Positions 1 to 26,190 of a stretch of DNA of 49,398 nucleotides are shown here, in pieces. The notes under the pieces were generated by a model that searched no databases, was not told the origin of the DNA, and saw only the letters and a program-made list of their open reading frames with translations. Source of the DNA: Chitinophagaceae bacterium (GTDB lineage: Bacteria > Bacteroidota > Bacteroidia > Chitinophagales > Chitinophagaceae). Each line of letters starts with the position of its first letter. Within the stretch, counting starts at the first letter, position 1. The position numbers were made by a program, and so were the translations under genes. The DNA is taken from positions 1 to 49,398 of the forward strand of contig CANCRO010000009.1 in assembly GCA_947380605.1 (NCBI GenBank), given 5' to 3'.

Positions 1-555
1 ATTGACATTTCCTTTCATTTTAGTCGTAGGCTGCACTCTTCCCTGCTTTTGCTGCACCACATGCCAAGTTTCGTGGGGTAGATGTTTCTCTTGACCAGTA
101 GCTAAATGTATATCTTTTCCCTTTGCATAGGCATGTGCTTTTAAATCCGCAGGCTCTTTTGAATTATAATGAACTTTTACGTCATCTAATGAGATACCAG
201 ATAACTGTTCGACTCCCGATTTTAGATTATTAGGTAATCCAGTTTTATTATTGGTAGCAGGTACCGGTGCATTGTTATTTTGACTCTTACGTTGAATAGC
301 AGGGAATGAAGGAGATGATTTTAGTTGTTTTGAACTAGTATGATCACTTGAAGGAATGCCTATCTCTCCAAAAGAATGAATACCTTTAATAGCCAGTGAT
401 CCATCTTCTTGTTTGAAGTCATCAGTTGACGGGTCATCTTTAAAAAGTTGCGCTACGGGTGAAGGGAGCGTAGCACTTGGGTTAATTCCATTAGAAGTAT
501 TCTTCTCATTAAAGGAATCATTGTTCTTTTTGGTTCTCGAGGTAAAGGTTGCCAT
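1..555 (-). CDS. DUF4157 domain protein, putative eCIS cargo (3' end beyond window)
   Basis: The frame is open from ATG at 555 to the window edge, giving 185 codons with no stop, so the C-terminal part is missing. Residues 1-105 are polar and low in complexity (Ser, Asn, Lys, Pro), which suggests a disordered leader. Residues about 106-180 match the DUF4157 pattern: an LPNNLKSGVEQLSG stretch, then VHYNS, then HAYAKGKDIH, then HLPHETWHVVQQKQGRV. HETWH at 161-165 is an HExxH zinc-metallopeptidase motif. DUF4157 proteins are known to be strongly associated with eCIS loci, often as N-terminal parts of toxins or cargo. The position upstream of the eCIS structural genes fits that role. Cargo function is inferred; the missing C-terminus would show whether a toxin domain follows. 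No signal peptide is visible. Confidence 0.85.
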   Translation of the reverse strand, partial: MATFTSRTKKNNDSFNEKNTSNGINPSATLPSPVAQLFKDDPSTDDFKQEDGSLAIKGIHSFGEIGIPSSDHTSSKQLKSSPSFPAIQRKSQNNNAPVPATNNKTGLPNNLKSGVEQLSGISLDDVKVHYNSKEPADLKAHAYAKGKDIHLATGQEKHLPHETWHVVQQKQGRVQPTTKMKGNVN

Positions 556-795
556 GGATAAAACATTTAAAAAAAGACAGTTAGTAAATATAATTATTTA
601 TAAACTAATCATCAAATCATTTAATAAATTTTAAAAGAGTGTTATTTTATAGACAATCTGTATTTACTTTAAAAAATATCTTAATATAAAGAAGAGGTTA
701 GAATAATTAAATAAAAATGTTTTAAATTAATTAATCAATTTGTAGATAATAATTAGATAAAATTTACCTTTTAAAAAGTAAATAGGAAAGTTCAA

Positions 796-1398
796 TTAAT
801 GATACATGAAAATTGAATAATCATTTTCCAAATAGTCATCATGTAAAATACAATGGGGAGTTAGTGTTTTACAAAAAGAAAATATCATGTTTTTATCATA
901 AGCTTTTATAAGAGAATTGTTTTCTGGTTCTTTCGAAAGCATGTTAAATGCTAATCCTAGTCTGCATCCTACAAAAAGCTTTTGTATCATTTCAAATGCA
1001 AATAAAGGGTTACTGTTTTTGTAATTCATTAACCCAGAGGCGATTGTGTAATCTAAAATTGGCAATGAAGCCATTTCTATATCTCCTTGAAAAAAAACTA
1101 CGTCTGGCATATTTCCGTAATCATTTAATGCTTTTAAAATAAATTCTGGTATTTGATCAATGCCATAATATCTACAGGTGGGATGAATATTTTTTAAATA
1201 GCCACATAAATCAGCATGACCACAACCTGCATCTAAAACAGAGCAATTATCGAAATTGGCTATTTTACTAAGAATAGAAAATCGTAGTTGCTGTGATTCA
1301 GCATTTACCCATCCTAGACTTCTTACATCACCTTTTTCGAACTTACGGGTTAAATTATTATGATATTTAAATATAGTGGCAGTATCTAGTAAAGACAT
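796..1398 (-). CDS. class I SAM-dependent methyltransferase in the eCIS locus
   Basis: This 200-residue soluble protein has the Rossmann-type methyltransferase motif I at residues about 54-60 (VLDAGCG). An acidic strand follows (YYGIDQIPEFI, about 77-87), where the Asp would bind the SAM ribose. A further acidic motif, FFQGDIE, comes near residue 105. The substrate cannot be read from sequence. It lies between the DUF4157 gene and the GH18-like gene on the same strand, with only 23 bases to the latter, so it is probably cotranscribed with it. It could modify an eCIS subunit or cargo, or be unrelated to the system. The family call is firm; any role in the eCIS is only inferred from position. 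Confidence 0.75.
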   Translation of the reverse strand: MSLLDTATIFKYHNNLTRKFEKGDVRSLGWVNAESQQLRFSILSKIANFDNCSVLDAGCGHADLCGYLKNIHPTCRYYGIDQIPEFILKALNDYGNMPDVVFFQGDIEMASLPILDYTIASGLMNYKNSNPLFAFEMIQKLFVGCRLGLAFNMLSKEPENNSLIKAYDKNMIFSFCKTLTPHCILHDDYLENDYSIFMYH

Positions 1399-1421
1399 AA
1401 ATACAATATGTATAATTTTTT

Positions 1422-3917
1422 TTAAGGGACATCTACCTTATTTAAAAGATTTTTGATGATTAAAAACCCTAAAACAATACCTACCAATACACCCAATGAA
1501 ATGATAATTAATAAAGTTTTAAAAGGCATATTAATACAGCTATTATCACTAGATTTAACACACAAAAGACTTGCTTTAATATCTAAGGAATCAGCTGTAG
1601 ATAATGCTGAATTATTATTTTCTTCCTCGATAGGACTAGATTTAGTTGATCCATAAAGTAACCTTCTAGTCATTATCCTTTGTGCTGTTCGAGGTAAATT
1701 TTTTATTTTGTTAAAATTGCTTTGAGATTTTCTTTTTTGAGTAGAAACCTTTTGATAAACAGCTGCCAAACTAGTGTTCTTTTTATTACTCTTGGTCTTA
1801 GTGCTATCTTTCGCATTAGCAATATCTTCTTGATTTTGAGAACTCTGCCCAAACCAAGGTATTGTATCATTGGTAAATAAAGCTAGAAACATTACAATCA
1901 AAAAACAATACCAAAATATTAATATAAATAGGGGGAGTATCTTTTGATGCTTATTAGCTTTAGTATTTTCCTTATTTTTAATTCTAAGAAAAAGAAGATA
2001 CGTAAGTAATAGGCAGATGATTAAAATTAATATAGCTAAGTAAGTAATATTTGTATTTAAACTATCGTTGGCAACCACAAAAGTGGTAGTTTGTTTTTTT
2101 CTAGCGAGCGTATCATAGCCTAGTATTTGAATAGCGAGATCTAAAGAAGATTTTAATTTTTTATCATCAATATTTTCAAAACAAATTTCACAGGGGTGAT
2201 CTAAGATATAAGCATATAATTTATATTTCAGAGCCATTTTTTTAAAAAAAGAAATTTTTCCGAGATCAAATTTTGAAATGGCACTATCACTTATTGGAAT
2301 AGTATCGATCTTTCCAAATTTGTAAAACATCATATCATTTAATTCTCCATACCCTTCATCAAATCCTACCGAGTAAAGCGCTACACCACCTAAACCATTC
2401 TCCAAAACAAAGTCATACTTTTTTGCCAAAGAATTCTCATCTTCAAAATAGATTCTTCTTTCTAGTGACCCTTTTTTATTAACACTGTCCATGGTGGCTG
2501 TGCCATTCTCTTCATCATAAATAACAGGCCATAAATAATTTCTTCTGATTTCAGAGTAGGTTAATTGTTGAGAAAACTTAAAACTTCTTGAAGAGGCGGA
2601 ATAACTCCAGCGAGTACCTTGATAGCCAAGACCTAGAATCAATTTGCTAGGTTCAATATTCATATTAGAATAATAAGAAACCGTGGATTCAATACTACTT
2701 AAATCTTTCCCCTTAATAGACGCTATAGGTCCTGGAATTTTAAAATCTGTTGGGTTGTAAAAATTTATAATATAAAAATCAATGAAATTATCAAAATTGG
2801 CTAGATCAAAAGGAGCATTGATTTTAGCATTGGGTAATATTAAATAGACTTCATATTCTTTATTAACTGACTTTATTTTAGCGCTAAATGCTTTAATAAA
2901 TTCTGACAATTCATTTTTCAACATTGGATCGGGTTGGTCAATCTGTAAACAAACCCCATTCGACTGATGAAGATTCATTACATACAACGTGTTTTTGAAA
3001 AATAGATCTTGATTCGATTTATTCAAAAGAATCGTAGAGAATTCATCTTTATTAGAAAAAATGACATTCACTATTGGCGTAAAACCAATTTGGGTGAGGG
3101 AGGCAAGGGTTTGGGAATTATCCCATCCATTTAAATTTTTAAAATTACCGGTTCTACCATCTACAAATAATCCATTGTAAATAATATTGTCGTAATTATC
3201 ATAATTATATTCTTGTTCAGGCTGACTATTATAATTTAAGAAGCCTAATACTTTAACCTTATTGGATGTAACCAGCGTAAATCTTTTGATAAGACCATTG
3301 GCAGTGTCTTTAGTTTCCCTGATAGTACCTAACTGTTGTAAAACTTTTTTTAGTTCAGCAATTTTTTCATTTTTCGCTTTTGCATTCACTGGTTGTGAGC
3401 CCTCTTTGGCTACTAGCGGAAGCATTTTGTTAGTCAACTCATCAATTTCAGAATCGGTAACTGGTTTGTTAGAAGAATTAATAGCATTATCTGGAGCATC
3501 AGTTACCACCGAACCATCTGGCTTAATTTTCAGACCGTTTATTAAATTCAGTAGGGTGTCATAATGTTGATTCTCAACTTTTGATAGTGCATCAATTAAA
3601 AATTTGATATTATCTGCAGACACATTTATAGAGTCTAGAATACCTAATGAATCGATTAGTTCGAGGGTTCTTTTTTGTTGGTTTTTTCTTACATTTGATT
3701 TAAATTTAAAAAAATCTATTACTTTATAAGCTAAACTCTTTTTAATCTTTTCAGCATCCTCTAATAATTTTTTTTGTGCATCCGCTGCAGCTTTAATTGC
3801 CGCTTCAGATTGTTTGGTAACACTTTTTGGTAATTGAGCGAAGGACGAACTATATAAGAAAATGCTGAATAAGAGTAAAAATGCTTTTTTAAATGACCTT
3901 ATCAAAAAAGTATTCAT
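1422..3917 (-). CDS. membrane protein with degenerate GH18-like domain
   Basis: This 831-residue protein begins with a clear signal peptide (residues 1-27, cleavage likely after SSFA). Next is a Lys/Ala-rich, helix-prone stretch to about 220 and a GH18 (chitinase-like) TIM-barrel region at about 221-536. Supporting barrel segments are VLGFLNYNS (223-231), a DFYIINFYNP strand (380-389), LILGLGYQGTRWS (426-438) and LGGVALYSVGFDEGYGEL (509-526). The usual DxxDxDxE catalytic motif is not preserved: the matching strand reads GVCLQIDQPD at 321-330, with no catalytic Glu. Three TM segments lie at about 624-644, 660-682 and 801-821, separated by a basic, Ser/Lys-rich linker. A binding or anchoring role towards peptidoglycan or another glycan is more likely than hydrolysis. 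It heads the operon divergent from the eCIS structural genes. Confidence 0.7.
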   Translation of the reverse strand: MNTFLIRSFKKAFLLLFSIFLYSSSFAQLPKSVTKQSEAAIKAAADAQKKLLEDAEKIKKSLAYKVIDFFKFKSNVRKNQQKRTLELIDSLGILDSINVSADNIKFLIDALSKVENQHYDTLLNLINGLKIKPDGSVVTDAPDNAINSSNKPVTDSEIDELTNKMLPLVAKEGSQPVNAKAKNEKIAELKKVLQQLGTIRETKDTANGLIKRFTLVTSNKVKVLGFLNYNSQPEQEYNYDNYDNIIYNGLFVDGRTGNFKNLNGWDNSQTLASLTQIGFTPIVNVIFSNKDEFSTILLNKSNQDLFFKNTLYVMNLHQSNGVCLQIDQPDPMLKNELSEFIKAFSAKIKSVNKEYEVYLILPNAKINAPFDLANFDNFIDFYIINFYNPTDFKIPGPIASIKGKDLSSIESTVSYYSNMNIEPSKLILGLGYQGTRWSYSASSRSFKFSQQLTYSEIRRNYLWPVIYDEENGTATMDSVNKKGSLERRIYFEDENSLAKKYDFVLENGLGGVALYSVGFDEGYGELNDMMFYKFGKIDTIPISDSAISKFDLGKISFFKKMALKYKLYAYILDHPCEICFENIDDKKLKSSLDLAIQILGYDTLARKKQTTTFVVANDSLNTNITYLAILILIICLLLTYLLFLRIKNKENTKANKHQKILPLFILIFWYCFLIVMFLALFTNDTIPWFGQSSQNQEDIANAKDSTKTKSNKKNTSLAAVYQKVSTQKRKSQSNFNKIKNLPRTAQRIMTRRLLYGSTKSSPIEEENNNSALSTADSLDIKASLLCVKSSDNSCINMPFKTLLIIISLGVLVGIVLGFLIIKNLLNKVDVP

Positions 3918-4258: not shown

Positions 4259-5374
4259 ATGATTTATGATGTAATACAAACTATTACCGATGGCTTAAAT
4301 ATTTTCTTTAAAACTCGACTTCGAACAATTGAAGATAAAGCTGTTATATCTGGAATAGTAAATCAGGATGGTTCTGTAGCTCAGTTAGAGGAAAACAAAG
4401 TATTAATTACTTTAGCTGGTATAGAAAAGGAGCCTACTAATTTTGGACCTAAAAAGGATGGCAAACAGCGTGTACATATTAATTTTTATTTACTATTTTC
4501 TTGTTATTTTTCTAATGCCAATTATAGCGAGTCGCTAAAATTTTTAGATTTTACCATGAATTTTTTGAACGATAATAGTTCAATGGATATTACAGAAGGG
4601 GGTGGTTTAAAAAGCACTAGTTCTAGCGGTGGATTAAAAGTTCAAATTGAAATTGAGTCATTGTCCTTAGATCAAACTAGTAATTTATGGAGCGCAATCG
4701 GAGCTAAACTGATGCCATCTGCTTTATACAAAATTAGAATGATTCCACTCGATAGTAACTCATTGACTGAATTTAGACCCTCAGCTGCTGCTGTGAGTGG
4801 TAATTCAAAGCAAATTGGAGGTGGAAGCAATACTAATCAAGGTTCAGAAACTGGTCAGGGAGATAATAATAGTGGAACGAATCAAACTACTACATCCAAA
4901 GAATCCTCTTCAGCTACAACTAGTCCTACAACACCTCCTCCTCAAAATACAAGGGGCAAAAGACCTCTCGTTGTTGGAGGGGAATATGCAAGAAGTATCA
5001 TTGAAAATGATAACGATGATGGAAAGGATGCTGCTGAGATCCCCGATCAAAATTCTAATGCGCCTGCATGGAACTTTAATCCTTCTTCAACCGTAGCAGA
5101 TAACTTACCCAATGATTCAGCAGCTGAAGTGGATGAAGCATCTTCTTTGAACGATCAACCAGATGATAATGCTGTTGACGAACCAGCTAAAAAAACAAAT
5201 CTACAGGGAGATAACCAAAATAATGATTTATTAAATAAAGTAAATCCATTGAATAAAAGTCAGGGTTCATTATTTTCTCCTTTTGCTTTACCTAAAAAAC
5301 CAGCTGATTCTAATTTAAAGGCTCAAGATACCGACCCAAATAAAAATTTAAATAAAGATTCAGATACTAAATAG
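4259..5374 (+). CDS. DUF4255/Pvc16-like eCIS tube terminator (cap) protein with long acidic tail
   Basis: Residues 1 to about 172 match the DUF4255/Pvc16 N-terminal family: an opening MIYDVIQTITDGLNIFF, then a VLITLAGIEKEPT strand, a NFYLLFSCYF strand, and an SLSLDQTSNLWSAIGAKLMPS stretch near 133-153. In PVC and Afp particles the homologous protein caps the distal end of tube and sheath. The remaining 200 residues or so are low in complexity (Ser/Thr/Asn/Gln, then Asp/Asn/Pro/Lys) and probably disordered, which is long for this family. It is the first gene of the structural operon, whereas the cap gene comes last in Afp/PVC. The next gene starts 40 bases downstream. Confidence 0.8.
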   Translation: MIYDVIQTITDGLNIFFKTRLRTIEDKAVISGIVNQDGSVAQLEENKVLITLAGIEKEPTNFGPKKDGKQRVHINFYLLFSCYFSNANYSESLKFLDFTMNFLNDNSSMDITEGGGLKSTSSSGGLKVQIEIESLSLDQTSNLWSAIGAKLMPSALYKIRMIPLDSNSLTEFRPSAAAVSGNSKQIGGGSNTNQGSETGQGDNNSGTNQTTTSKESSSATTSPTTPPPQNTRGKRPLVVGGEYARSIIENDNDDGKDAAEIPDQNSNAPAWNFNPSSTVADNLPNDSAAEVDEASSLNDQPDDNAVDEPAKKTNLQGDNQNNDLLNKVNPLNKSQGSLFSPFALPKKPADSNLKAQDTDPNKNLNKDSDTK

Positions 5375-5414
5375 CTTAATTAAATTTTCAATTGATATTT
5401 TTTTAATTTTCCTT

Positions 5415-6254
5415 ATGAGTTCGACCTATCAATTATTGTTTCGGATAAATTTTTTTCATACCTATTTTACCAATGGTAAGTTTACTGCTATTCAATTGAA
5501 ACCAGATCAATCCACTGAAAATATTTTTAAGAACTATGATTTAATTTTAAGAAACGAAGCAAATGGTGTAGGTATATTCTTTGCTGAACAATTTGCTGAT
5601 GAAAGAAGAACTAGAGAGCAAATATTATCCGATCAGTTAGGCTTTACTTTTAAATTAACTTGTGGAGATGCCAATTTTTATAATTATACAGATTACATGC
5701 CCTCTGTAATTGAAGAAAATCTCTTGTATTTTAAATATCCATTTTCTTTTACCCCTTCACCAAATGGATTGATGCATAGTAATAAATGTGTAACTGAATT
5801 TGATTTAAAAAATAATTTAACTTTAGAACAACCATATTTCTCCAAACCTTTTGGCCATATCGATATTACTACGGACGTAAATATTCCTACAGAATTAAAA
5901 ATTCAATTTTTTTCTCCCTCTCTTTACTGGCGATATATCATTTATAAGTCTCATCTTTTAGAATTTGAGGGACTTGCTATAGCTAATAAGAATAAGACTA
6001 TATTTTTCAAAGGACCGCAAAGTATTCTTTTGCCTAATGGCAATGCTGCTGTTGCTTTCACTTCACCAACCCCCCTTCAATTTACAGAACATCCTGAGCT
6101 GAATTGGCAATTATTGGAGCAATATAAACCAGGGGAGAGTTTAGGTCGTGTTATTATGCCTAGTCTGCCTGTTCCCAAAAACAATTTAGTTAGTTTTTTA
6201 GGCAAGGAATACGCTGTAGAAAATCAACAACGTGTTTTAGAAATTTTCATTTAA
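5415..6254 (+). CDS. conserved eCIS-associated protein of unknown function
   Basis: This 279-residue soluble protein has no signal peptide or TM segment. The N-terminus has a pattern I recall from Bacteroidota eCIS loci: a strand of type YQLLFRINFFHTYF, then GKFTAIQLKPD, then a FKNYDLILRNEANGVGIFF stretch. The rest is rich in aromatic residues and predicted beta, with a region near 120-175 that resembles a jelly-roll or beta-sandwich. I do not recognise a named domain. It lies between the cap and sheath genes, so a distal-end role (for instance adaptor between cap and tube) is plausible, but this is positional inference only. Confidence 0.6.
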   Translation: MSSTYQLLFRINFFHTYFTNGKFTAIQLKPDQSTENIFKNYDLILRNEANGVGIFFAEQFADERRTREQILSDQLGFTFKLTCGDANFYNYTDYMPSVIEENLLYFKYPFSFTPSPNGLMHSNKCVTEFDLKNNLTLEQPYFSKPFGHIDITTDVNIPTELKIQFFSPSLYWRYIIYKSHLLEFEGLAIANKNKTIFFKGPQSILLPNGNAAVAFTSPTPLQFTEHPELNWQLLEQYKPGESLGRVIMPSLPVPKNNLVSFLGKEYAVENQQRVLEIFI

Positions 6255-6424
6255 ATTAGTTAATATTACAAGTTAATTATATAATTATTTTATATAATAC
6301 CTCATTCCTTTTTTTAATTTAAAAATTAATATTCACTATTGATTTTTATGTTAATATTTTGTGTATTATTGTTGTCCGAATAAATAAAAAATTATTTTAT
6401 TTAACTCAAAACAAAAACACAAAA

Positions 6425-7924
6425 ATGGCTACAAAATTAATGACACCTGGTGTTTACATCGAGGAGAAGAATGCTTTTCCTAGTTCCGCTGGTGCAGTTG
6501 AAACAGCAGTTCCCGTATTTATCGGTTACACTGCTAAAGCAACAAGAAACGGTAAATCACTTTCTCACGTGCCAACAAAAGTTAATTCTTTTGCTGAGTA
6601 TGTTGAACTTTTTGGAGGTGGATTCCTTACAAAGTATGTTGTTGCAGATGCAGCGGCTACTGACAAGGATTCATTTACTTTAAATGGTAAGGAAGTTACC
6701 GTAAAAGCTAAAAGCAACAATGAATTTTTGTTGTACAGAGCGTTAAGGTTTTTCTATGCTAATGGAGGTAGTTCTTGCTACATCCTTTCTGTTGGAACTT
6801 ACTGGGATAAACCAGCAGGTTTTGATATAGCATTTGATGACTTTTTGGGAAGTGATACTAAACCCAATCCATTCAAAATTTTAGAAAAAGAATTTGAACC
6901 AACGCTAATTGTTATTCCAGATATTATTTCGAAAGGTGCAAGTTGCTATCCTGTATACCAACAGGTTTTGATGCATTGCGCTAAAACTCAAAGTAGATTT
7001 GGGATTTTTGATATAGCTAACGAACCAACAAAGACCACTACTGAAACAGTTACTGAGTTCAGAGAGCAAATTGGAATGAATTCTTTAAACTATGGTGCTG
7101 CTTACTTTCCTTGGGTAAAAACAAGTATTGTTACTGCCTCAGAAGTTACTTTTGAAAACATTGATGATTCAATCAATTTAGAAACTTTATTACCTGAACC
7201 AAATGCGCAAGAAGTAGCTAAGAAATTTAAAGCTTTAAAACCTGAATCTATTGATGCTGAAGCTCGTAAAAGTTATCATCAATCATTAAGTGCTTGTAGT
7301 AGTACTTATGTTAATTTGTTAGGTGAAATTCGCAATTCTTTAAATTTATTACCTCCTTCAGCTGGTATGGCTGGTATTTATACTTTAGTTGATACTAGTA
7401 GAGGTGTATTTAAAGCTCCTGCTAACGTTTCTATGAATGCAGTTAATGCTCCTTCTATCAACATCTCTCATGACGAACAAGAAAGTTTGAATGTGGATTT
7501 GATGGGTGGTAAATCTATTAACGTTATTCGTCCTTTCCCTGGTATCGGAACATTAGTTTGGGGTGCTCGTACATTGGATGGTAATAGTCAAGATTGGCGT
7601 TATATCAACGTTAGAAGAACATTAATCATGATTGAGCAATCATTAAAATTGGCTGCTCGTACTTATGTTTTTGAGCCAAATGATGGTGGTACTTGGTCAA
7701 CCATTAGTGCAACAATTAATAACTTCTTGTTCAATCAATGGAAATCTGGAGCCCTTGCAGGTTCTTCTCCTGAACAAGCCTATTCTGTTGCAGTTGGATT
7801 AGGTTCTACTATGACTCCTAATGACATATTAGACGGTGTTATGAGAATTGAAGTGAAACTTGCTATTGTAAGACCAGCTGAATTCATCGTATTAACATTC
7901 CAACAAAAACAACAAGAAGCTTAA
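6425..7924 (+). CDS. eCIS contractile sheath protein (Pvc2/Afp2-like)
   Basis: This is the outer sheath subunit, which contracts to drive the inner tube into the target. The ATG at 6425 gives 499 residues and the usual opening TPGVYIEEKNAFPSSAGA found in phage-tail-type sheaths. An in-frame ATG at 6359 would add 22 residues that break this conserved N-terminus, so it was not used. The C-terminal domain is also characteristic: VRRTLIMIEQSLKLAARTYVFEPN, then WSTISATINNFLFNQWKSGAL, ending with the AIVRPAEFIVLTFQQK strand that interlocks neighbouring subunits. Only one sheath gene is visible here, whereas Afp/PVC loci carry three. The tube gene follows after 57 bases. Confidence 0.93.
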   Translation: MATKLMTPGVYIEEKNAFPSSAGAVETAVPVFIGYTAKATRNGKSLSHVPTKVNSFAEYVELFGGGFLTKYVVADAAATDKDSFTLNGKEVTVKAKSNNEFLLYRALRFFYANGGSSCYILSVGTYWDKPAGFDIAFDDFLGSDTKPNPFKILEKEFEPTLIVIPDIISKGASCYPVYQQVLMHCAKTQSRFGIFDIANEPTKTTTETVTEFREQIGMNSLNYGAAYFPWVKTSIVTASEVTFENIDDSINLETLLPEPNAQEVAKKFKALKPESIDAEARKSYHQSLSACSSTYVNLLGEIRNSLNLLPPSAGMAGIYTLVDTSRGVFKAPANVSMNAVNAPSINISHDEQESLNVDLMGGKSINVIRPFPGIGTLVWGARTLDGNSQDWRYINVRRTLIMIEQSLKLAARTYVFEPNDGGTWSTISATINNFLFNQWKSGALAGSSPEQAYSVAVGLGSTMTPNDILDGVMRIEVKLAIVRPAEFIVLTFQQKQQEA

Positions 7925-9046: not shown

Positions 9047-9217
9047 ATGCCAATAGAAATTCGGGAATTAGTGATTAGAGCAACAGTTGATCAAAAAAAA
9101 ACAACTGATAATGTAGTGAATATTGAAGAGCAGATGAATAAAATTAAGTTAGAAATTTTGAATGATTTATCCTATAAGATGAAAAGTCTTATAAAGGAAT
9201 CTATCTATAAACGTTAA
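9047..9217 (+). CDS. DUF5908-type small eCIS protein (56 residues)
   Basis: A short frame from ATG at 9047 to TAA at 9215-9217 encodes 56 residues starting MPIEIRELVIRATVDQ, which matches the N-terminal MPxEIRELxI pattern of the DUF5908 family found in contractile injection loci. The C-terminal half is a charged, probably helical segment (EEQMNKIKLEILNDL). It fills the gap between the second tube-like gene and the LysM gene, with 44 bases before and 4 after it. The placement between tube and LysM genes matches the small Pvc6-like position of Afp/PVC loci. Its function is unknown. Confidence 0.75.
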   Translation: MPIEIRELVIRATVDQKKTTDNVVNIEEQMNKIKLEILNDLSYKMKSLIKESIYKR

Positions 9218-9221
9218 TGAT

Positions 9222-17074: not shown

Positions 17075-17091
17075 GTTAATTTTAGTTGAAA

Positions 17092-19938
17092 ATGGTAGTG
17101 CCCGATATATCTAATATTGTAGAGAAGAATGTCTCGGATGTGTCGATGAACTTTGAAAAATTAAGAGACGAAGCTTTAGCATATGTTCAAAAATATTCTG
17201 GTGCTGAATGGACAGATTTCAACTTGCACGATCCTGGAATTACAATTTTAGAAGCACTCTGCTTTGCATTAACCGATCTTTCCTTTCGAACTGGATTTTC
17301 AATAACAGATATCCTATCTGATGCTAAAGGAAATGTTGATTATGAAGATCAATCATTTCACTTACCTCCAAAAATTTTAAATACCCATCCTGTTTCTATC
17401 AATGATTATAGAAAAATTGTAATTGATCAAGTTACAGAGGTTCAAAATATATGGATAAGCTCTCCTAAAGATTTATTTGGATCAAGATCTGTACGTGGTT
17501 TTTATAAGGTGAGCTTGCAATTAACTGTAAGTGCTTGGCAAACTTTGTTAGATATAGAAAATGAGCAGGAGAATAAAATAAAAAAAGAAGCAATTATTCA
17601 AAAAGTAAAAAATGTACTTTTTAAAAACAGAATGATTGGAAATGATTTCTTTAATTTTAAGATTGTTGAGCCTAAAAATATTAAAATTAATGCCAAAATT
17701 TCTGTTGATAACACGGAGTCATCAGAGGAGGTTTTGGCTCAGATTTTCTGGACTATAAATAATTTCCTTAACCCTTCAGTTGACTATTTTTCACCAAATG
17801 AATTGCTTGATAAAAACATTAAAGTAGAGGATATATTTAATGGACCTACTTTAGTGAAGGGCGTAATTAATGATGAAACGCTACGTGAACTTCCTAAACA
17901 AATTGACCCAGCTGATTTAGTTAGATTAGCTGGTAAAGTAAAGGGGGTAGTGAATGTTATTAGCCTATCCATTAGCGATGGAAACAAAACAACTTCAGAA
18001 GAGCCTATATTTTTAAAAGAGGGTGAATTTGGCTCTATAAAACCTTTACTTGATTTTACTACTATTGAACTTTATAAAGAAGGAGTCGATGTAATAGTTC
18101 GTAAACAAACTTTTGCTTCTATTTACAAGAAGTTTGTTAATGAAAGTGAAAATAAGTTTTTAGGATATTCTTCAGTCTTTTCGGATAAGTTTACCGGCCA
18201 ATTTAGGAATATATCAAATTACCATTCTATCCAACATCATTTTCCTATTATTTATGGTATTGGAAATGAGGGAATTAGTAGAAATGAGTCGAATGATAGA
18301 AAAGCTGCTGTAAAACAATTAAAGGCCTATCTACTTGTATTTGAGCAAATAATGGGAAATTATTTGAGTCAATTATCATCAGTGAATAAATTATTTTCTC
18401 ACAAAATAGATGCAAAGCATAGTCATACCTATTTCTCTCAGCCTATTTTGGATGTGCCTGGTATTAATGATTTAATAAGTTTTATCAGTTTGTTGCCTGT
18501 TGATAAAAATGGCTTGTTTAAGAAAAAGCAATATGAAACAGCTATTGTTCAATATCAGCAAACTTTAACCAGACTGGTCGAGGCTGATATTGATTATGTA
18601 GATAGAAAAAATGCATTTCTAGATCATATGTTATCTAGATTTAATTATTCCTTGAATAGTTATCCTGTAGAATTAGCTGAGCATTACTATCAATTAAAAA
18701 ATCTTCAAAAAAATGACGATGTACTTTTATGGAAATCTGAATTTTTAAAAAATATAGTATCGTATAGTGCTAACAGAGCAAGAGGAACTTATTATCAAAG
18801 TAATGATAATAATACATTTGATTTCATGCATTTGTTATATAAAATTCTTTTTATTAATAATGCACCTTATCAATCAACGCTTAAGTTTCTTTCTAATTCA
18901 GAAACTGCTAAAATTTCAATAGATCATACGTTGCCTTCAGATGAAAATGATATTGAAGTAGAAAAAAAATTAGTACTCTTAGACGAAGTAATCACTATTA
19001 GGAATCAATCCCATAAAAGAAATACTCCTACTCATTTAGATTTCGAAGATGAATTATTAATATTTGAACAACAAAATGAATTAATTTTTAGAGATGCTTG
19101 TAATCACGATAATTTTAAAATAACGCCGAATGTTTTTACTAATGAGGGGTATCTCATTTTATATAATCAAATTGTAGAAAAAGAATGGATTGTTGTTGGT
19201 AAATCAAAGAGTCTGTCAGAAGCTAAAATTAAAATTCAAAAAACCGTTCAATATTTTATAAATATTAGTTTGCAGTCTGAAGGGATTCATATTGTAGAAA
19301 ATATTTTGTTACTACCTAATGTATTAAGTAACTCTTTTGGATTTCAGTTTTTATTAAAAAATGACTCTACAGTCATATTAAAGAATAATAACTGGCTTTC
19401 TTTTGCTGACAGAAATAATTTATTAAGTTATGTTCATGAATTAATTCAGATTAATGATCTTTCTGTTAAAGAAAAATTAGTCATCTTAAATAAGTATTTT
19501 GATATTACTGATTTAAGAGGCCTTAGTTTAGAGGAAGCTTCACCAGAAATAATTACTACAATTTATGCTCAAATTGAATCTGTTTTTAAGGATTTTTCAA
19601 AAAATGATTATAAACTTATTAATGAACAAATTGTTTTATTAGTTCGTCTTTCAAACGGATATGAAATTGAAGAAGCCTTTTTTGATAGTCAACTCAGCTT
19701 TTTTATACCCCAATGGCCAGCTCGTTTCCAAGATGAAAATTTCAAGAAATTTATTAATAAAATTATTTCTGAGTTTACTCCAATTCATTTGAAGTTAAAT
19801 ATTAAGTATTTATCTATAGAAGAAATGAAAAATTTTGAAAGTATATATTTTTATTGGCTTTCTATGCTTCAGGTTAGCAATGGAAAAGATTTTCAAAAAA
19901 TAAGTTTTGATTTAATCTCCTTAATGAACAAATCATAA
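17092..19938 (+). CDS. second baseplate wedge protein (Pvc12-like)
   Basis: The ATG at 17092 gives 948 residues; a TTG two codons upstream is less likely to be the start. The diagnostic part is near the N-terminus: SGAEWTDFNLHDPGITILEA with DPGIT at about 48-52, followed by LCFALTDLSFRTGF. This motif is common to baseplate J/Pvc12 proteins. A second conserved stretch, FPIIYGIGNEGIS near 385-400, and a C-terminal block (QWPARFQDENFKKFINKIIS, then TPIHLKLNIKYLS) also match what I know of Bacteroidota eCIS wedge proteins. With the Pvc11-like and gp25-like proteins it would form the wedge. The tape-measure gene starts one base after its stop. Confidence 0.82.
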   Translation: MVVPDISNIVEKNVSDVSMNFEKLRDEALAYVQKYSGAEWTDFNLHDPGITILEALCFALTDLSFRTGFSITDILSDAKGNVDYEDQSFHLPPKILNTHPVSINDYRKIVIDQVTEVQNIWISSPKDLFGSRSVRGFYKVSLQLTVSAWQTLLDIENEQENKIKKEAIIQKVKNVLFKNRMIGNDFFNFKIVEPKNIKINAKISVDNTESSEEVLAQIFWTINNFLNPSVDYFSPNELLDKNIKVEDIFNGPTLVKGVINDETLRELPKQIDPADLVRLAGKVKGVVNVISLSISDGNKTTSEEPIFLKEGEFGSIKPLLDFTTIELYKEGVDVIVRKQTFASIYKKFVNESENKFLGYSSVFSDKFTGQFRNISNYHSIQHHFPIIYGIGNEGISRNESNDRKAAVKQLKAYLLVFEQIMGNYLSQLSSVNKLFSHKIDAKHSHTYFSQPILDVPGINDLISFISLLPVDKNGLFKKKQYETAIVQYQQTLTRLVEADIDYVDRKNAFLDHMLSRFNYSLNSYPVELAEHYYQLKNLQKNDDVLLWKSEFLKNIVSYSANRARGTYYQSNDNNTFDFMHLLYKILFINNAPYQSTLKFLSNSETAKISIDHTLPSDENDIEVEKKLVLLDEVITIRNQSHKRNTPTHLDFEDELLIFEQQNELIFRDACNHDNFKITPNVFTNEGYLILYNQIVEKEWIVVGKSKSLSEAKIKIQKTVQYFINISLQSEGIHIVENILLLPNVLSNSFGFQFLLKNDSTVILKNNNWLSFADRNNLLSYVHELIQINDLSVKEKLVILNKYFDITDLRGLSLEEASPEIITTIYAQIESVFKDFSKNDYKLINEQIVLLVRLSNGYEIEEAFFDSQLSFFIPQWPARFQDENFKKFINKIISEFTPIHLKLNIKYLSIEEMKNFESIYFYWLSMLQVSNGKDFQKISFDLISLMNKS

Positions 19939-19939
19939 T

Positions 19940-22900
19940 GTGATTACCGCTTCAAATTCTATACAAAAATTGGTCCTAGATGTTAGGGTCAATGTGGATA
20001 AATCTAATGATGATGTTTTTAATAAATTTAGCTCAATAGCTAATTTAAAAGCGATTCCTACCATTAGTAATTATTTCGATGCGATTATTCCAAAAGATGT
20101 TGTTATTGTGATTGATCATTTGGATTTAAACTTAGGATTAATAAAATACGAAGACCTAGAGTCTGTTTTTAAGGATAAATTGCTTGCTGCTTTAAAAGAT
20201 ACTTTTAGTAAATATTTTAATGAAAGTGGTAACTATCTGCCTCAGTCCAATAATTTATTTACAGTCAAAAATTTGCCAGATAATCAATTGGCATTTGTAA
20301 AGTATTATTTATTATTTGGTCGTGCTCCTTGGTGGGCTGAGACTTCTTCGATTAACTTTTCTGATTCTATCTTACAAGTTATTAATCAATCACCTGCAGA
20401 ATTTAGGAAATTGCTATATGAAATTGGGAGAAGTGAATTGGTTAGAAAAAGACTTGCCTTCTCTTTTGATGAGGGAGTTATTAAGAAAATTATTCATATT
20501 TTAGAACCTTCCCAGTCTGAATATATTTTTCAATATCATACTACTGTTACTAAATTAAATCATGTAAAACAAACTGTAAAAGGAGAAGAAAAGGAATTTA
20601 AACGTTCTTTATGGTACGTCATTTTAACGTATATTATTTATAATAGAGGAGGAGTTTTTAATAGACGTGAGTTTTTAAAGCAAAACTTATATAATGTTTC
20701 TACGTTGTATAATTTAAAATATAGTGATTTCATTTCTTTATTATATAAAGGATTGAAGGATAATAAATTGATAAAGGAAACTCCTATTTTATCTGATTTG
20801 TACGATGATGTATTTTACTTAGCTCAAGAATCGAATGTTTTAGAAATCAATAAAAAACCATCTGCTAATAAAAAAGAGAAAAAAATACTGAACAATGAGG
20901 ATTCTATAAAAGAGCAATTAGCAGTATTGCATTATTATCTTGAAAGGGGGTCATTTTCTATTTCTTTATTTAATTATTCTCAAAATGATTTACTATCAAT
21001 TCTAGACTCTTTATTAAATTATTATACCGATTTATTTATTCGATATCTAAAATCGATCGAATTAAATGCTTATATGATTAATAGGTTATATAATCTATTA
21101 CCAGCTTCACATTTTAATCAATTAATAGTTTTAATAACTCCTGCTAGTCTAGGTGTCAAAATTAGTGAAGTACAAAAATCATTTATTTTGTTTTTGATAA
21201 ATAGTAAATTAAGTACTCAAATTTTAAATAGTAATGATTTCAAAAAATCAATTCTATCTCTCATAGTTTCGAATAACTATTCAATCTCTTTTTCTGAATT
21301 GTTAAAACACTTTATAAAAAGGATATCTACTCAATTACATATATCTTATTCTAAAGCCTATTTATTATATGAACAGGACTTAAAACGTCAAATTCAGGTT
21401 AAAGAGTATAATTTGAATGTATTGAAAAAAATAGCTGAACAAATAGATAATTTACGTTATCAAAATGACTTCACTGAATTAACGAATAAAAATCTAAAGA
21501 GTGAAGTTGAAACGAATGATTTTGGAATTGCTGATTTTTTAAAATTTCTAATTCAAAGAGGTTTTATTCCATGGTGGGGTAAAGGTTATGTATCAAAACC
21601 ATTAGATAAACTATTGATGGATTTATTTTATAAAAATCCAAAAGAAGCTAATGCCATTTTTTATTTTGCCTCCTCACAAATTTTATATAGAAATCGGTTT
21701 ATTCAATATTTTTCTATAAATGTCACTAAAACATTTTTAGAAAATTTATGGAAAAATGAAAACGATTGGAAAATTTATGATTTATTAGAAAAGTTATTAA
21801 AATCTTTGCCAGCCAATTTTAAGCAACCTCCTAACGAGGTAAAAAGTATTATTTTGCTTCATTCATTTTGGAAAATTCTTTTGGAGGGTAATTTTTCTGT
21901 ATTTAATAATGATAAGTTTATTCAACTCAATTTTTTATTGTTAAAAAAATATCATTTATTTGAGATAAAGGAGTTTTTATCTTATTTAGAAGATAACCAT
22001 TTACATCTTTTGGGTAATGATTCTTTATTATCCAATGATCATTTTATTGAAATTGTTAATTCATTAGAAACTTATTCACTTGTTAATGAATCCATGGAGG
22101 AGCTTTCTAATAGTAACATTATTACAATAGACAGCTGGTTTGAATTAATTGTTACTAATGTCATTTTTGGCAATAAAAAATTATCCAAAACAAGAAAAAT
22201 AAAAGAAATTTTGTCTGTATTAAATTATTTCTTTAAAAATTTACTACTTCCATCATATCTTTTATCCTATTTGAAAGATAAGCAATCAATTTTCATTTCT
22301 TATTTATTAAGATATTATCTTTCATTAGATAGAAATAAATTTATTCAATATATACATTTAACTATTGATACAATTGATACCCCTGATTGGCTAGAAGAAA
22401 TTTTATTCAATTATAAGAATCAATTTTCTTCAGATAAAGTTAATTTAATTTCTTCTACTAATTTTGAAGCGCTTAATTTGGATAATCAAACTTTGTTTGA
22501 AAATGATGATTTATTTATTGCTACATTACTTGGTTTTAAACCCTTTTCTACTGTAAATACTGAAATTGAAAAGATTTCTAATGAAAGCTTTTATCTTTTG
22601 ATTTTTATATTAAATAGTAACAAATTACCCAATAAGTATGAATCACTCAATCGATTTGATTATTCTTTTTTAGTTACTTTATTGTTGAGATATATTTATG
22701 CTCACAACAAGGAATTGTTTAATCAATTTTTACTTAAGTTTTCTTTTTTTTCAGATACTAGTAGATGGTTAGTATTTAAATCTTTTACTGGAATTTCATC
22801 TTATGCTAACGATTTGTTAATTGTCGAGGAATTAATACCATTAATGAATGATGAGATTAATTTTCAAAACAAGCGAAATGAAATGATGGTTAGTGATAAA

Positions 22901-24847
22901 AGTTCTTTTAACTTAAGTTTTAAATTAAATGAATGGGTTAATAATGAATCTCTACTAGCTGGATTAAGTAAAGAGGATAAGTTATTTCAATTGTTCTCTT
23001 ATTTTTTATTAAATGGTAAATTATTTGACTCATTCTCTTTTTTATCAAATACTTATTTGCATGAATTTTTAAGAATTTTAATTTTTGAACTTGAAAAAAT
23101 TGATTCAAAAAAAATATTGCTACTATTGTCTAGTGATAAAAATAATTCTTTAGCTACTGATTTGGTTTACAACCTTTTTTCTAAAGGAAATTCAATTGAT
23201 GAAAGAAGGATTCATTCTTTGTTTCTATCTGCCATTCCCAAAAATTCATCTTTTGATATATTGAAAGATGATTTACTTGAATTTGACTTGCAATTTATTG
23301 ACCCTTCCTTTAATAATCGACCTTTAGTTGATTTGGATTTTAAAGAATTATTTTATCGAACTAAAGGTGTAGATAATATTAGTGATGAATTGATTGTAAA
23401 CAATTCGATTGAAATTTTTATATATTTTTTAACTCATAAGAAAAGAGAACCTCAATTTAAAAGAATTTCGGATAATCAATTTCTCATTTATTTAAAAGAA
23501 ATAATAGGGTTTATTTTCTTAAAACAATCAACTACTATAAGAGAAGCTATTGAAAATCCAATTTATCCTTTATCAAGTAAATTAGCAGTGTTTTCGCTTT
23601 TTTTCCAAACTTATGATAGTAAAGACAATGCTATAAAGACTTTTTTACAACCTTTGATTGAATTTCAAATTTTCAAATACATTGAATCTGTAGTTCAATA
23701 TCCAATTTCTACTATTAATTTCAAAGTTGCCATCAATACTATTTTAAAGTCTACTTACCCAATTGAAAATGTTAAAGTATTAAAACTTTTACAATTTGTT
23801 CAATCTGATGATTTGTTAGATGAATTGCCTCAATTATATTTATCCGATTTAGTGACTAAAAATATGGATAATTTACAAGCTGCTTATGTAAAACAAATTT
23901 TATTATTATTTCATTCTTCTCTATCTAATCATAAGGATAAAAATGAGTTGTCTAATTCTTTTATACGTTTTAATTCTTATTCACTTTCTGAGTTGAAATC
24001 ATTGGTTAGTTTAGAAATTTACCTTCGTAGATTGATTCAATTTTTATTGTATCAAAATAGATCTAGAGCCATTTATTTTTTCGAAAAGTTTTTATATTAT
24101 ACTAAAGATATTAATTTGAATTTTTCGTCTGAATATTTTTTAATTATTAATAAGTTAAGAAAGTTATTATTTGAATTAGTTAATGCATCAGACTATTCAA
24201 CTTTATCTGCTAATCACATTATTAATCGAGATAAGCCTGTTTTAGATAAAATTAATCAAGTAGTTTCAGATTTTACAGATGCTGAAAATGCCAAATTTTT
24301 AGAAGAGGTAGATTTACCTACTCCAATTGAAAATTATAAAGAATCAGATGAATCTATATATATTAATAATGCTGGTTTAGTTCTCTTTAATCCTTATATC
24401 ACTACTTTTTTATCTCGATTGGGTATGACTGAAAAGGGTAAATTTAAGGATGAGGAGTCAGCTTTTCGCTCTGTCCATTTATTACAATTATTAGTTACTG
24501 AAGCTACCTATGGAGAACATGAACTTGTTCTAAATAAAATTTTATGTAATTTGCCTGTATCATCTCCTGTTCCAATGGATTTTGTTTTAAAACCAGCTGA
24601 GAAACAATTAGCTAAAGAGCTTATTGAAGTAACTATGCAGCGCTGGAAGAAAGGAAGTTCTGGTTCTAAAGAAAGTTTTAGAGCTTCTTTTCTTAATAGA
24701 GATGCTCGATTATCAATGATGAATGAAGAATGGCATTTGAAAGTTGATCAACGTGGTTATGATGTTATTTTACAAACTTTGCCTTGGTCTTACGGTATGA
24801 TTAAATTACCCTGGATGTCAAAACCTCTTATCGTAGAATGGATATAA
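19940..24847 (+). CDS. contractile injection system tape-measure protein (Pvc14-like)
   Basis: The start is GTG at 19940, one base after the preceding stop; the ATG at 19938 is followed at once by TGA. At 1635 residues it is mostly helical and very rich in Leu, Ile, Asn, Ser and Lys. The N-terminus (IQKLVLDVRVNV, then VIDHLDLNLGLI) and the C-terminal block (NNAGLVLFNPYITTFLSRLGM at about 1475-1495, then HLLQLLVT, EHELVLNKILCNLP, TMQRWKKGSSGSKESFRASF, PWSYGMIKLPWM) match eCIS tape-measure proteins. Two modules share a PWW motif: FGRAPWWAE (Trp131-132) and RGFIPWWGK (Trp545-546). It sets tube length during assembly. Its 3' end overlaps the ATPase gene by 10 bases, so translation is probably coupled. 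Confidence 0.88.
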   Translation: MITASNSIQKLVLDVRVNVDKSNDDVFNKFSSIANLKAIPTISNYFDAIIPKDVVIVIDHLDLNLGLIKYEDLESVFKDKLLAALKDTFSKYFNESGNYLPQSNNLFTVKNLPDNQLAFVKYYLLFGRAPWWAETSSINFSDSILQVINQSPAEFRKLLYEIGRSELVRKRLAFSFDEGVIKKIIHILEPSQSEYIFQYHTTVTKLNHVKQTVKGEEKEFKRSLWYVILTYIIYNRGGVFNRREFLKQNLYNVSTLYNLKYSDFISLLYKGLKDNKLIKETPILSDLYDDVFYLAQESNVLEINKKPSANKKEKKILNNEDSIKEQLAVLHYYLERGSFSISLFNYSQNDLLSILDSLLNYYTDLFIRYLKSIELNAYMINRLYNLLPASHFNQLIVLITPASLGVKISEVQKSFILFLINSKLSTQILNSNDFKKSILSLIVSNNYSISFSELLKHFIKRISTQLHISYSKAYLLYEQDLKRQIQVKEYNLNVLKKIAEQIDNLRYQNDFTELTNKNLKSEVETNDFGIADFLKFLIQRGFIPWWGKGYVSKPLDKLLMDLFYKNPKEANAIFYFASSQILYRNRFIQYFSINVTKTFLENLWKNENDWKIYDLLEKLLKSLPANFKQPPNEVKSIILLHSFWKILLEGNFSVFNNDKFIQLNFLLLKKYHLFEIKEFLSYLEDNHLHLLGNDSLLSNDHFIEIVNSLETYSLVNESMEELSNSNIITIDSWFELIVTNVIFGNKKLSKTRKIKEILSVLNYFFKNLLLPSYLLSYLKDKQSIFISYLLRYYLSLDRNKFIQYIHLTIDTIDTPDWLEEILFNYKNQFSSDKVNLISSTNFEALNLDNQTLFENDDLFIATLLGFKPFSTVNTEIEKISNESFYLLIFILNSNKLPNKYESLNRFDYSFLVTLLLRYIYAHNKELFNQFLLKFSFFSDTSRWLVFKSFTGISSYANDLLIVEELIPLMNDEINFQNKRNEMMVSDKSSFNLSFKLNEWVNNESLLAGLSKEDKLFQLFSYFLLNGKLFDSFSFLSNTYLHEFLRILIFELEKIDSKKILLLLSSDKNNSLATDLVYNLFSKGNSIDERRIHSLFLSAIPKNSSFDILKDDLLEFDLQFIDPSFNNRPLVDLDFKELFYRTKGVDNISDELIVNNSIEIFIYFLTHKKREPQFKRISDNQFLIYLKEIIGFIFLKQSTTIREAIENPIYPLSSKLAVFSLFFQTYDSKDNAIKTFLQPLIEFQIFKYIESVVQYPISTINFKVAINTILKSTYPIENVKVLKLLQFVQSDDLLDELPQLYLSDLVTKNMDNLQAAYVKQILLLFHSSLSNHKDKNELSNSFIRFNSYSLSELKSLVSLEIYLRRLIQFLLYQNRSRAIYFFEKFLYYTKDINLNFSSEYFLIINKLRKLLFELVNASDYSTLSANHIINRDKPVLDKINQVVSDFTDAENAKFLEEVDLPTPIENYKESDESIYINNAGLVLFNPYITTFLSRLGMTEKGKFKDEESAFRSVHLLQLLVTEATYGEHELVLNKILCNLPVSSPVPMDFVLKPAEKQLAKELIEVTMQRWKKGSSGSKESFRASFLNRDARLSMMNEEWHLKVDQRGYDVILQTLPWSYGMIKLPWMSKPLIVEWI

Positions 24848-26190
24848 AAAAATCACAATTAAACGCGAAAGCGATTTTAGCTGACCTGGAATGGCTCCAT
24901 AAAGTTATTCAATGTAGATTTCAATTGTATTGGAATCAAGCGTGTCCTTATCTATCTATTCATGAGATTCATCCTCCTGATATTTCTACTAATCAATCTC
25001 CTTATGCCTCAATTATTTTAAATAATTCTATGGATTTTGATGAACGACTTATTTTCATTTTATCCCTAGCTCAGCATGTACAGCCTCAACTATTGGATAT
25101 TTTCTTTACTAAAAATTCTGATTATAATAGAGAATTTACTGAGTTTGGAGGGGTGAAAGGAAAAATTCATAATGGCTTTATTCCTACTGGTGAAACGGCT
25201 GTTTTTATTTTGTCTGGAAATTCTTTAGAACATCGCTTTAGAGTTTTAGAAATTTTAGATTCAGATCATTTTTTCTTTAAAAAAGGGATGCTTACACTGG
25301 AACATACTGAACCAAATGAACCTTTTTTTACTGGCATTCTTAACCTGTCTATTGAGTATTTAAATATTTGCACTCATGGCAATAATCATAAGCCTGATTA
25401 TAATTCAAGTTTTCCTGCTAAATTAATTAATACCAACTTAGACTGGTCTGATTTAGTTGTTTCAGATGAAGTACTGGATGAATTAGAAGAAATTAAAGAT
25501 TGGATGGCTCATGGAAATATTTTATTGAATGATTGGGGATTGGATAAAAAAATAAAACCTGGTTATCGTGCATTGTTTTTTGGTCCCCCAGGAACCGGTA
25601 AAACTTTAACTGCTTGTTTACTTGGAAAGTATGCCAATATGGATGTGTATCGAATTGATTTATCAATGATTGTTTCTAAATATATAGGTGAGACTGAAAA
25701 GAATTTGGGAAAAGTTTTCGATCAAGCAATGAATAAAAATTGGATTTTATTTTTCGATGAGGCGGATTCACTTTTTGGAAAAAGAACTCAGACTTCTAGT
25801 TCTAATGATCGCTTTGCTAATCAGGAAGTCTCTTATTTATTACAGAAAATTGAAGATTTTCCCGGTATTATAGTTTTAGCAACCAATCTAAAAGCCAATA
25901 TGGACGATGCTTTTTCAAGACGTTTTCAAAATATGGTTTATTTTACTATTCCGGATGCTAAACAAAGAGAAATTATATGGAAAAATGCTTTTTCTGATAA
26001 GTCAATTTTGGATAAAAATGTTCATTTAGAAGAAATTGCAGATAAATATGAAATTGCTGGAGGGTCCATCATTAATGTTATTCGTTACTGTTCTCTAAAA
26101 GCATTGAAGCGTAATGATAACATCATTAAAAAAAATGATATCATCACGGGTATAAAAAAGGAACTTTTGAAAGAAGGAAAGACTATTTAA
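24838..26190 (+). CDS. AAA+ ATPase of the eCIS (Pvc15-like)
   Basis: This 450-residue protein has an N-terminal domain of about 200 residues without known motifs, then an AAA+ module with Walker A GPPGTGKT (249-256), Walker B ILFFDEAD (303-310), a sensor-1 segment VLATNLKAN (347-354) and paired arginines FSRRFQN (361-362). It belongs to the ATPase type encoded at the end of nearly all eCIS loci, thought to help particle assembly or cargo loading; it is not a ClpV-type recycling ATPase. The ATG overlaps the tape-measure gene by 10 bases. It is the last gene of the eCIS operon. No clear terminator follows in the 177 bases before the next gene. Confidence 0.92.
   Translation: MDIKKSQLNAKAILADLEWLHKVIQCRFQLYWNQACPYLSIHEIHPPDISTNQSPYASIILNNSMDFDERLIFILSLAQHVQPQLLDIFFTKNSDYNREFTEFGGVKGKIHNGFIPTGETAVFILSGNSLEHRFRVLEILDSDHFFFKKGMLTLEHTEPNEPFFTGILNLSIEYLNICTHGNNHKPDYNSSFPAKLINTNLDWSDLVVSDEVLDELEEIKDWMAHGNILLNDWGLDKKIKPGYRALFFGPPGTGKTLTACLLGKYANMDVYRIDLSMIVSKYIGETEKNLGKVFDQAMNKNWILFFDEADSLFGKRTQTSSSNDRFANQEVSYLLQKIEDFPGIIVLATNLKANMDDAFSRRFQNMVYFTIPDAKQREIIWKNAFSDKSILDKNVHLEEIADKYEIAGGSIINVIRYCSLKALKRNDNIIKKNDIITGIKKELLKEGKTI

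What the first reader, a model, noticed from the sequence alone, without database searches (positions are those of the whole stretch)
1..26190. Complete Bacteroidota extracellular contractile injection system with divergent accessory genes
The sequence shows sheath, two tube proteins, LysM, VgrG-like, PAAR, gp25, two J-like wedge proteins, a tape measure and a AAA+ ATPase in one direction, with a cap gene first. No capsid, portal or terminase gene and no T6SS membrane complex (TssJLM) are present, which from knowledge of these families means an eCIS and not a prophage or T6SS. The divergent genes (DUF4157, methyltransferase, GH18-like membrane protein) are not part of the Afp/PVC core and may define a lineage-specific system.
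Basis: partly seen in the sequence, partly recalled or inferred. Interest (0 to 1): 0.85.

Follow-up and report, generated by a model that had tools for sequence, protein, structure and literature searches.

The report
Phage-tail injector with a membrane partner
A Bacteroidota bacterium carries the genes for a phage-tail-like injection machine of a known kind, but beside them sits a membrane protein with an apparently inactivated sugar-cutting domain that most close relatives of this machine also carry, which suggests that the machine works together with its maker's own membrane.

Summary
The contractile injection system (CIS) is really there (4259-26190, +) and is of the AlgoCIS/SalCIS/tCIS kind. 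DUF4157 is the standard eCIS-associated domain, not a lineage novelty. The methyltransferase had no match in 12 other clusters. The third divergent gene is the real finding: 1422-3917 encodes a signal peptide, a GH18 fold, three C-terminal membrane helices and a short tail ending in proline. Of 80 X261-type clusters from named genomes, 56 have a homologue on the same contig, 3 more a diverged one by sequence, and 3 a look-alike by architecture only; two readable clusters have none. No GH18 hit lay within 25 kb of the tape measure in 69 CIS genomes without full-length X261. The membrane module is absent from 31 CIS-unlinked GH18 homologues. The catalytic D-x-E is missing in 65 of 79 CIS-associated copies (window NGVCLQID) but present in 26 of 26 free ones. 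A membrane-held GH18 protein became a CIS partner and mostly lost its catalytic residues. Most likely it docks the cytoplasmic particle or gates firing or release, as CisA is proposed to do in Streptomyces. That role is inferred. I found no description in nine open-access literature searches.

The parts
1..555 (-). eCIS_core (DUF4157) protein, probable cargo/effector, C-terminal part cut by the contig start
   Evidence: Pfam PF13699 E 1.3e-9; contig starts here; only such match in the assembly
796..1398 (-). class I SAM methyltransferase, not a conserved part
   Evidence: Pfam; no match in 12 other clusters
1422..3917 (-). GH18-TM: signal peptide, GH18-fold domain (res. 230-520, catalytic D-x-E replaced: Q325, D327), three C-terminal TM helices (626-644, 663-681, 803-821), C-terminal tail ...KVDVP
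4259..5374 (+). cap (Alg16A/Pvc16-like)
   Evidence: Pvc16_N E 4.4e-24
5415..6254 (+). cap adaptor (Alg16B/SalCis16b-like)
   Evidence: phmmer E 0.0028 to 9r9n_C, position; match in 32 of 35 related stretches
6359..7924 (+). sheath
   Evidence: SalCIS sheath E 2.6e-133, AlgoCIS 3e-103
7982..8440 (+). inner tube protein
   Evidence: gp19 E 1e-39
8550..9002 (+). second gp19-type tube protein, by position the tube initiator (Alg5-like)
   Evidence: gp19 E 1.7e-22
9047..9217 (+). plug (Alg6-like by position, DUF5908, 56 aa)
9222..9887 (+). CIS_tube/LysM tube initiator (Alg7-like)
   Evidence: Pfam E 1.3e-29
9894..11690 (+). VgrG-like spike
   Evidence: Phage_base_V E 1.3e-17
11709..11999 (+). PAAR tip
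   Evidence: E 2.5e-21
12027..12440 (+). gp25-like baseplate protein
   Evidence: E 9.7e-21
12474..16286 (+). baseplate wedge 11 (J-like)
   Evidence: SalCIS 9rce_A 2.9e-74, AlgoCIS 4.8e-70
16289..17074 (+). X261: short tail fibre at the Afp13/Cis13 position; N-terminus like tCIS Cis13 (All3316), shaft motif, conserved tip with a possible T4 gp9-like fold
17086..19938 (+). baseplate wedge 12
   Evidence: tCIS All3315 4e-62, AlgoCIS Alg12 2e-52
19940..24847 (+). tape measure protein, 1635 aa, with several CIS_TMP matches (long form)
   Evidence: CIS_TMP E 5.5e-103, 4 stretches
24838..26190 (+). AAA+ ATPase (Afp15-like)
   Evidence: AAA E 8.9e-27

Best explanation
The locus encodes a CIS of the AlgoCIS/SalCIS lineage together with a dedicated inner-membrane partner, GH18-TM. 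Shown by sequence: GH18-TM is a GH18 protein with a C-terminal membrane module that usually accompanies X261-type CIS, although its place in the cluster varies. The membrane module and a C-terminal tail that nearly always ends in Pro with an acidic residue just before are kept. The catalytic residues are usually lost, as in the window. Inferred: the GH18 fold faces the periplasm and binds peptidoglycan or another envelope glycan. The loop between TM1 and TM2 and the C-tail face the cytoplasm and hold or sense the assembled particle, perhaps through the conserved tip of X261. The partner thereby positions the CIS at the membrane and couples an envelope signal, or loss of envelope integrity, to firing or release. 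DUF4157 cargo is delivered by the tube.
For: Linkage: of 80 X261 loci kept (of 192 relatives), 56 have a GH18-TM homologue on the same contig (43 upstream divergent, 10 upstream same strand, 3 downstream). L187 and L188 have one by profile (E 5e-11 and 5e-12; contigs checked) and L190 by hhalign (E 9e-5). L183, L185 and L189 have a look-alike by architecture and position. Phylum sample of 395 genomes: 13 have an X261 match, 6 of them full length; 4 of these 6 have a linked GH18 hit and the other 2 a diverged homologue (hhalign E 8e-18 for one; its near-twin). 0 of the other 69 CIS_TMP genomes have a GH18 hit within 25 kb. Module: at least 2 C-terminal TM helices in 70 of 70 and terminal Pro in 69 of 70 uncut CIS-associated copies, against 0 of 31 and 1 of 31 CIS-unlinked homologues. 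D-x-E present in 14 of 79 CIS-associated against 26 of 26 free copies. Topology: median net charge +3 (loop 1-2), -1 (loop 2-3), +1 (C-tail) in 63 proteins; loop 1-2 more positive than 2-3 in 57 of 63. GH18 fold in the model (4wiw E 2.8e-17, SleL 5.4e-17). Analogy: CisA, a membrane protein on which CIS contraction depends in Streptomyces (abstract and passages, PMC12237407).
Against: No interaction between GH18-TM and any CIS part was tested. Two X261 clusters read over about 18 kb on both sides have no such membrane protein (Paludibacteraceae L169, Desulfoluna L179), so it is not obligatory and X261 need not bind it. In 14 of 80 records the homologue was not shown to be on the X261 contig; in one of them (L116 = G030) the stretch upstream of the cap was read and it is not there, it lies on a small contig with two DUF4157 genes. 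Fourteen copies keep D-x-E and may be enzymes; 3 of the 65 others keep the Glu. For the Dysgonomonas/Tannerellaceae proteins homology is not established (hhalign E 0.004, probability 8.5). AlgoCIS, a close sheath relative, floats free in the cytoplasm and is found in culture supernatant (PMC8894135). One search scored at most two candidates per genome, so 0 of 69 is not exhaustive. Helices come from a simple hydropathy scan.
Confidence: 0.45

Rival explanations
1. Release factor: GH18-TM is a membrane-held peptidoglycan hydrolase that opens the wall so that an ordinary eCIS can be released, a stand-in for a phage endolysin.
For: Nearest solved folds include the spore-cortex-lytic enzymes SleL. 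D-x-E is intact in 14 of 79 copies. The two Nitrospirota-type copies carry a PG_binding_1 match (E 1e-4 and 2.9e-4, just under Pfam's cut-off).
Against: The catalytic Glu is missing in 62 of 79, including the window copy, and the full D-x-E in 65 of 79, including every copy from records named as Chitinophagaceae or Sphingobacteriaceae genera. A lytic enzyme that loses its catalytic residue while its membrane module stays is hard to explain.
Confidence: 0.2
2. Self-protection or regulation: GH18-TM shields the producer's inner membrane or wall from its own particle, or senses envelope stress and controls expression of the divergent operon.
For: Usually divergent from the CIS genes (43 of 56). 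Membrane-bound with a periplasmic sensor-like domain.
Against: No cytoplasmic signalling or DNA-binding domain was found in the window protein; only a short loop and a tail of median 13 residues face the cytoplasm. Position and orientation vary.
Confidence: 0.15
3. Plain eCIS; GH18-TM is cargo or an unrelated neighbour.
For: A predicted chitinase is among the reported eCIS-associated toxins (EAT3, passages of PMC8213781).
Against: Signal peptide plus three TM helices does not suit a cargo packed in the tube. Linkage by sequence in 59 of 80 clusters with varying gene position makes chance neighbourhood very unlikely.
Confidence: 0.06
4. Prophage tail, tailocin remnant or T6SS.
For: The sheath has phage sheath matches in PHROGs (1.4e-50 and weaker).
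Against: Cap, CIS_tube, CIS_TMP, AAA and eCIS_core all present; no IcmF in the genome; the flanking genes scanned in three relatives are chromosomal; the right flank of the window is housekeeping.
Confidence: 0.03

Closest known systems
SalCIS (PDB 9r9h, 9r9i, 9r9n, 9rce)
   Same: Nearest solved sheath, wedge 11 and cap adaptor.
   Different: No paper found for it in the library, organism not identified; a sheath fragment of it is at most 75% identical to any locus held (Desulfoluna, a cluster without GH18-TM). No fibre or GH18-TM chain of it was hit in the PDB searches.
AlgoCIS (Algoriphagus machipongonensis, PMC8894135; abstract and section 5 parts 1-2 of 4 seen)
   Same: Single sheath, cap plus cap adaptor, plug, LysM tube initiator, two wedges with an extended Alg11.
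   Different: Putative Ig-like fibre Alg19; free-floating in the cytoplasm and found in the supernatant; no GH18 membrane partner is mentioned in the parts I read.
Thylakoid-anchored CIS (Anabaena, PMC8894136; passages seen)
   Same: Fibre with the same N-terminal attachment segment (Cis13/All3316; profile E 2.5e-5); a CIS held at its own membrane.
   Different: There a TM helix in Cis13 itself helps to anchor the particle; X261 has no TM helix (0 of 10) and ends in a conserved beta tip.
CisA of Streptomyces CIS (PMC12237407; abstract and passages seen)
   Same: Accessory membrane protein encoded with the CIS, with an extracytoplasmic domain, needed for contraction.
   Different: CisA is single-pass with a long cytoplasmic N-terminus and a C-terminal domain said to resemble periplasmic substrate-binding domains; no homology tested or claimed.
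GH18 N-acetylglucosaminidases (SleL, chitinases)
   Same: Fold and Pfam family (1.8e-21).
   Different: Catalytic D-x-E lost in the window copy; added three-helix membrane module.

Membership tests
eCIS lineage (AlgoCIS/SalCIS-like) | sheath, tubes, LysM tube initiator, spike, PAAR, gp25, two wedges, tape measure, AAA ATPase, cap in one cluster | tested here: met
eCIS lineage (AlgoCIS/SalCIS-like) | cap adaptor and plug of the AlgoCIS type | tested here: met
   plug DUF5908 E 3.7e-8 (that DUF5908 is the plug family rests on position and recall); cap adaptor E 0.0028 plus position
eCIS lineage (AlgoCIS/SalCIS-like) | sheath phylogeny within the eCIS clade | not tested
   only ranked matches
eCIS lineage (AlgoCIS/SalCIS-like) | release and action outside the cell | not testable with these tools
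   needs microscopy
Thylakoid CIS (tCIS) | Cis13 fibre carrying a C-terminal TM helix | tested here: not met
   hydropathy scan: no TM segment in 10 of 10 X261 proteins
T6SS | TssM/IcmF membrane protein | tested here: not met
   0 matches in the genome, control rings in E. coli; weak as a test, since T6SS of Bacteroidota may lack it (recalled)
Prophage or tailocin remnant | capsid, portal, terminase beside the tail genes | tested here: inconclusive
   none among the window proteins scanned nor among the few flanking genes scanned in three relatives; left side of this contig is missing
Active GH18 hydrolase | D-x-E of the DxxDxDxE motif (motif recalled) | tested here: not met
   Q-I-D at residues 325-327
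CisA-type membrane adaptor | needed for CIS contraction | not testable with these tools
   genetics required
Afp13/Cis13-type tail fibre | N-terminal baseplate-attachment segment followed by shaft and C-terminal binding domain | tested here: met
   All3316 N-terminus E 2.5e-5; shaft motif matches Bdellovibrio fibre 8ond E 3.9e-7; trimerisation and binding not tested

The most novel reading that the evidence does not exclude
A third way of membrane-coupled CIS action beside tCIS and CisA: across Bacteroidota and relatives, cytoplasmic CIS dock on an inner-membrane pseudo-glycosidase that reads the peptidoglycan, with the conserved gp9-like fibre tip as the trigger contact, so that these 'extracellular' CIS are in fact fired from or at the maker's own envelope.
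Probability: 0.3. Interest if true: 0.82.

Novelty: new variant of a known kind. Interest (0 to 1): 0.62.

Why it matters
CIS clusters are often called extracellular from gene content alone. A widespread, dedicated inner-membrane partner with a decayed enzyme domain suggests that a large group of them has a membrane-coupled step (docking, firing or release) that I found no report of. It gives one gene to delete in cultivable Chitinophaga or Pedobacter species to find out. It also looks like a case of an enzyme fold turned into a structural or sensing part of a nanomachine.

Full report
Observation. The window is the start of contig C9 of a 2.9 Mb genome. Three were missed: a cap adaptor (5415-6254), a 56-residue plug (9047-9217, DUF5908) and a tail fibre (16289-17074). 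By phmmer the sheath is closest to SalCIS, then AlgoCIS, then tCIS; pyocin and T4 sheaths are barely detectable. IcmF is absent from the genome. The right side of the window is housekeeping. The flanking genes scanned in three relatives are SusD/TonB, thioredoxin, peptidase, ABC transporter and DUF4157 genes. So it is a CIS of the eCIS lineage, by ranked matches and gene content; no phylogeny was built. The left end is cut inside the DUF4157 gene.

The membrane protein GH18-TM. In 98 same-family genomes, 22 with CIS_TMP, a single-sequence search gave strong hits (E below 1e-40) in four besides the window, all of them CIS genomes. In G055 and G065 it lies beside the cap gene on one contig, and in G006 beside the cap at a contig end. 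In G030 it lies on a 7.6 kb contig with two DUF4157 genes and not upstream of the cap. An alignment-based search of the 80 named X261 genomes found a strong hit (best E at most 3.5e-77) in 50 of the first 50 and E below 1e-46 in 20 of the other 30. Three more have a diverged homologue on the contig: L187 and L188 (profile E 5e-11 and 5e-12, ORFs) and L190 (hhalign E 9e-5). L183, L185 and L189 have a 427-437 aa protein at the cluster end with the same architecture and tail (KR[RQ]EKP) but no established homology (hhalign E 0.004, probability 8.5). Five of these six end in Pro. Fourteen records have a homologue not shown to be on the X261 contig. Four have none found; two of these are readable absences (L169, L179) and two are on short contigs. 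In the phylum sample 75 of 395 genomes have CIS_TMP; 13 have an X261 match, 6 of them full length (one of the 7 partial ones, G192, has stops inside). Four of the six have a linked GH18 hit. The other two, G158 and G249, have a diverged homologue upstream of the cap (hhalign E 8e-18 for G249), without the terminal Pro. None of the other 69 CIS_TMP genomes has a GH18 hit within 25 kb of its CIS_TMP match (compared by eye; at most two candidates per genome were scored; hits on other contigs cannot be placed). Three X261-negative clusters that I read (G403, G407, G077) have no such gene.

Module and decay. Of 70 uncut CIS-associated copies all have at least two C-terminal TM helices, 66 have three, 69 end in Pro, and 66 have an acidic residue in the four before it. 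Of 31 CIS-unlinked GH18 homologues 0 have the helices and 1 ends in Pro (simple hydropathy scan). D-x-E is intact in 26 of 26 free homologues used for the tree and in 14 of 79 CIS-associated rows. Of the 65 others, 3 keep the Glu (G065, G542, G550), so the Glu is missing in 62 of 79; the window has Q325 and D327. On a FastTree tree without the motif columns, rooted on the free copies, the CIS-associated rows are one side of a branch (support 92). The state needs 3 changes on that tree, of which starred branches force 2 (several deep forks are weak, L190 is a long branch). Every copy from records named as Chitinophagaceae or Sphingobacteriaceae genera lacks D-x-E. The flavobacterial (Aquimarina, Tenacibaculum, Lutimonas), Balneolaceae/Gracilimonas and most of the few Cytophagales copies keep it (Roseivirga does not). 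Net loop charges (+3, -1, +1) put the GH18 domain in the periplasm and the C-tail in the cytoplasm. The model has a GH18 barrel close to chitinases and SleL. Two Nitrospirota-type copies add a PG_binding_1 match just under Pfam's cut-off.

How it most likely works. A membrane-held GH18 protein was recruited by this CIS lineage. What evolution kept in most copies is not the chemistry but the fold, the membrane module and the cytoplasmic tail. That is what a docking or sensing part should look like: the periplasmic domain holds the wall, and the cytoplasmic tail meets the particle. The closest working analogue is CisA: contraction of the Streptomyces CIS depends on it and it is proposed to recruit the CIS to the membrane (abstract and passages, PMC12237407). 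In tCIS the fibre carries a membrane anchor (passages, PMC8894136). AlgoCIS, a close sheath relative, is free in the cytoplasm and found outside cells (PMC8894135, section 5 parts 1-2 of 4). So docking as a resting state is not a given; the partner could act only at firing or at release. These steps are inference.

Verdict. The CIS is of a known kind. DUF4157 is ordinary for it, and the methyltransferase is incidental. The GH18 membrane partner is a testable component of a wide CIS lineage that I did not find described in nine searches of an open-access library (some listings capped). Subscription papers, preprints and any SalCIS paper are not covered.

Noticed in passing
window 19940-24847: Tape measure of 1635 aa with the N-terminal part of CIS_TMP matched several times over (19958-20902, 20843-21490, 21410-21928). 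The six full-length-X261 genomes of the phylum sample all have long forms (825-1640 aa), but so do some X261-negative ones (for example G403, G407, G378), so length is no marker.
   Followed up: partly
L183:18185-19468, L185:18128-19411, L189:16278-17591: Dysgonomonas and Tannerellaceae X261-type clusters carry a 427-437 aa protein with no Pfam match above cut-off, three C-terminal TM helices and the tail KR(R/Q)EKP: perhaps a shrunken GH18-TM, homology not established.
   Followed up: partly
L318:2438-4831, L319:2394-4634: Nitrospirota-type MAGs have a GH18-TM homologue with an added N-terminal PG_binding_1-like stretch, shortly after the tape measure.
   Followed up: partly
G192:C56:147840-148142: A stretch matching only the X261 tip, with four stop codons inside, in a genome without a CIS_TMP match: possibly a decayed fibre remnant.
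   Followed up: no
window 26368-29301: Fusion of an FAD-linked oxidase with a 4Fe-4S domain (977 aa) directly after the CIS.
   Followed up: no
window 30203-30574: Small Holin-X (holin superfamily III) protein, away from the CIS and probably unrelated.
   Followed up: no
window 3918-4258: 341-base, very A+T-rich divergent spacer between GH18-TM and the cap gene; regulatory sites not analysed.
   Followed up: no
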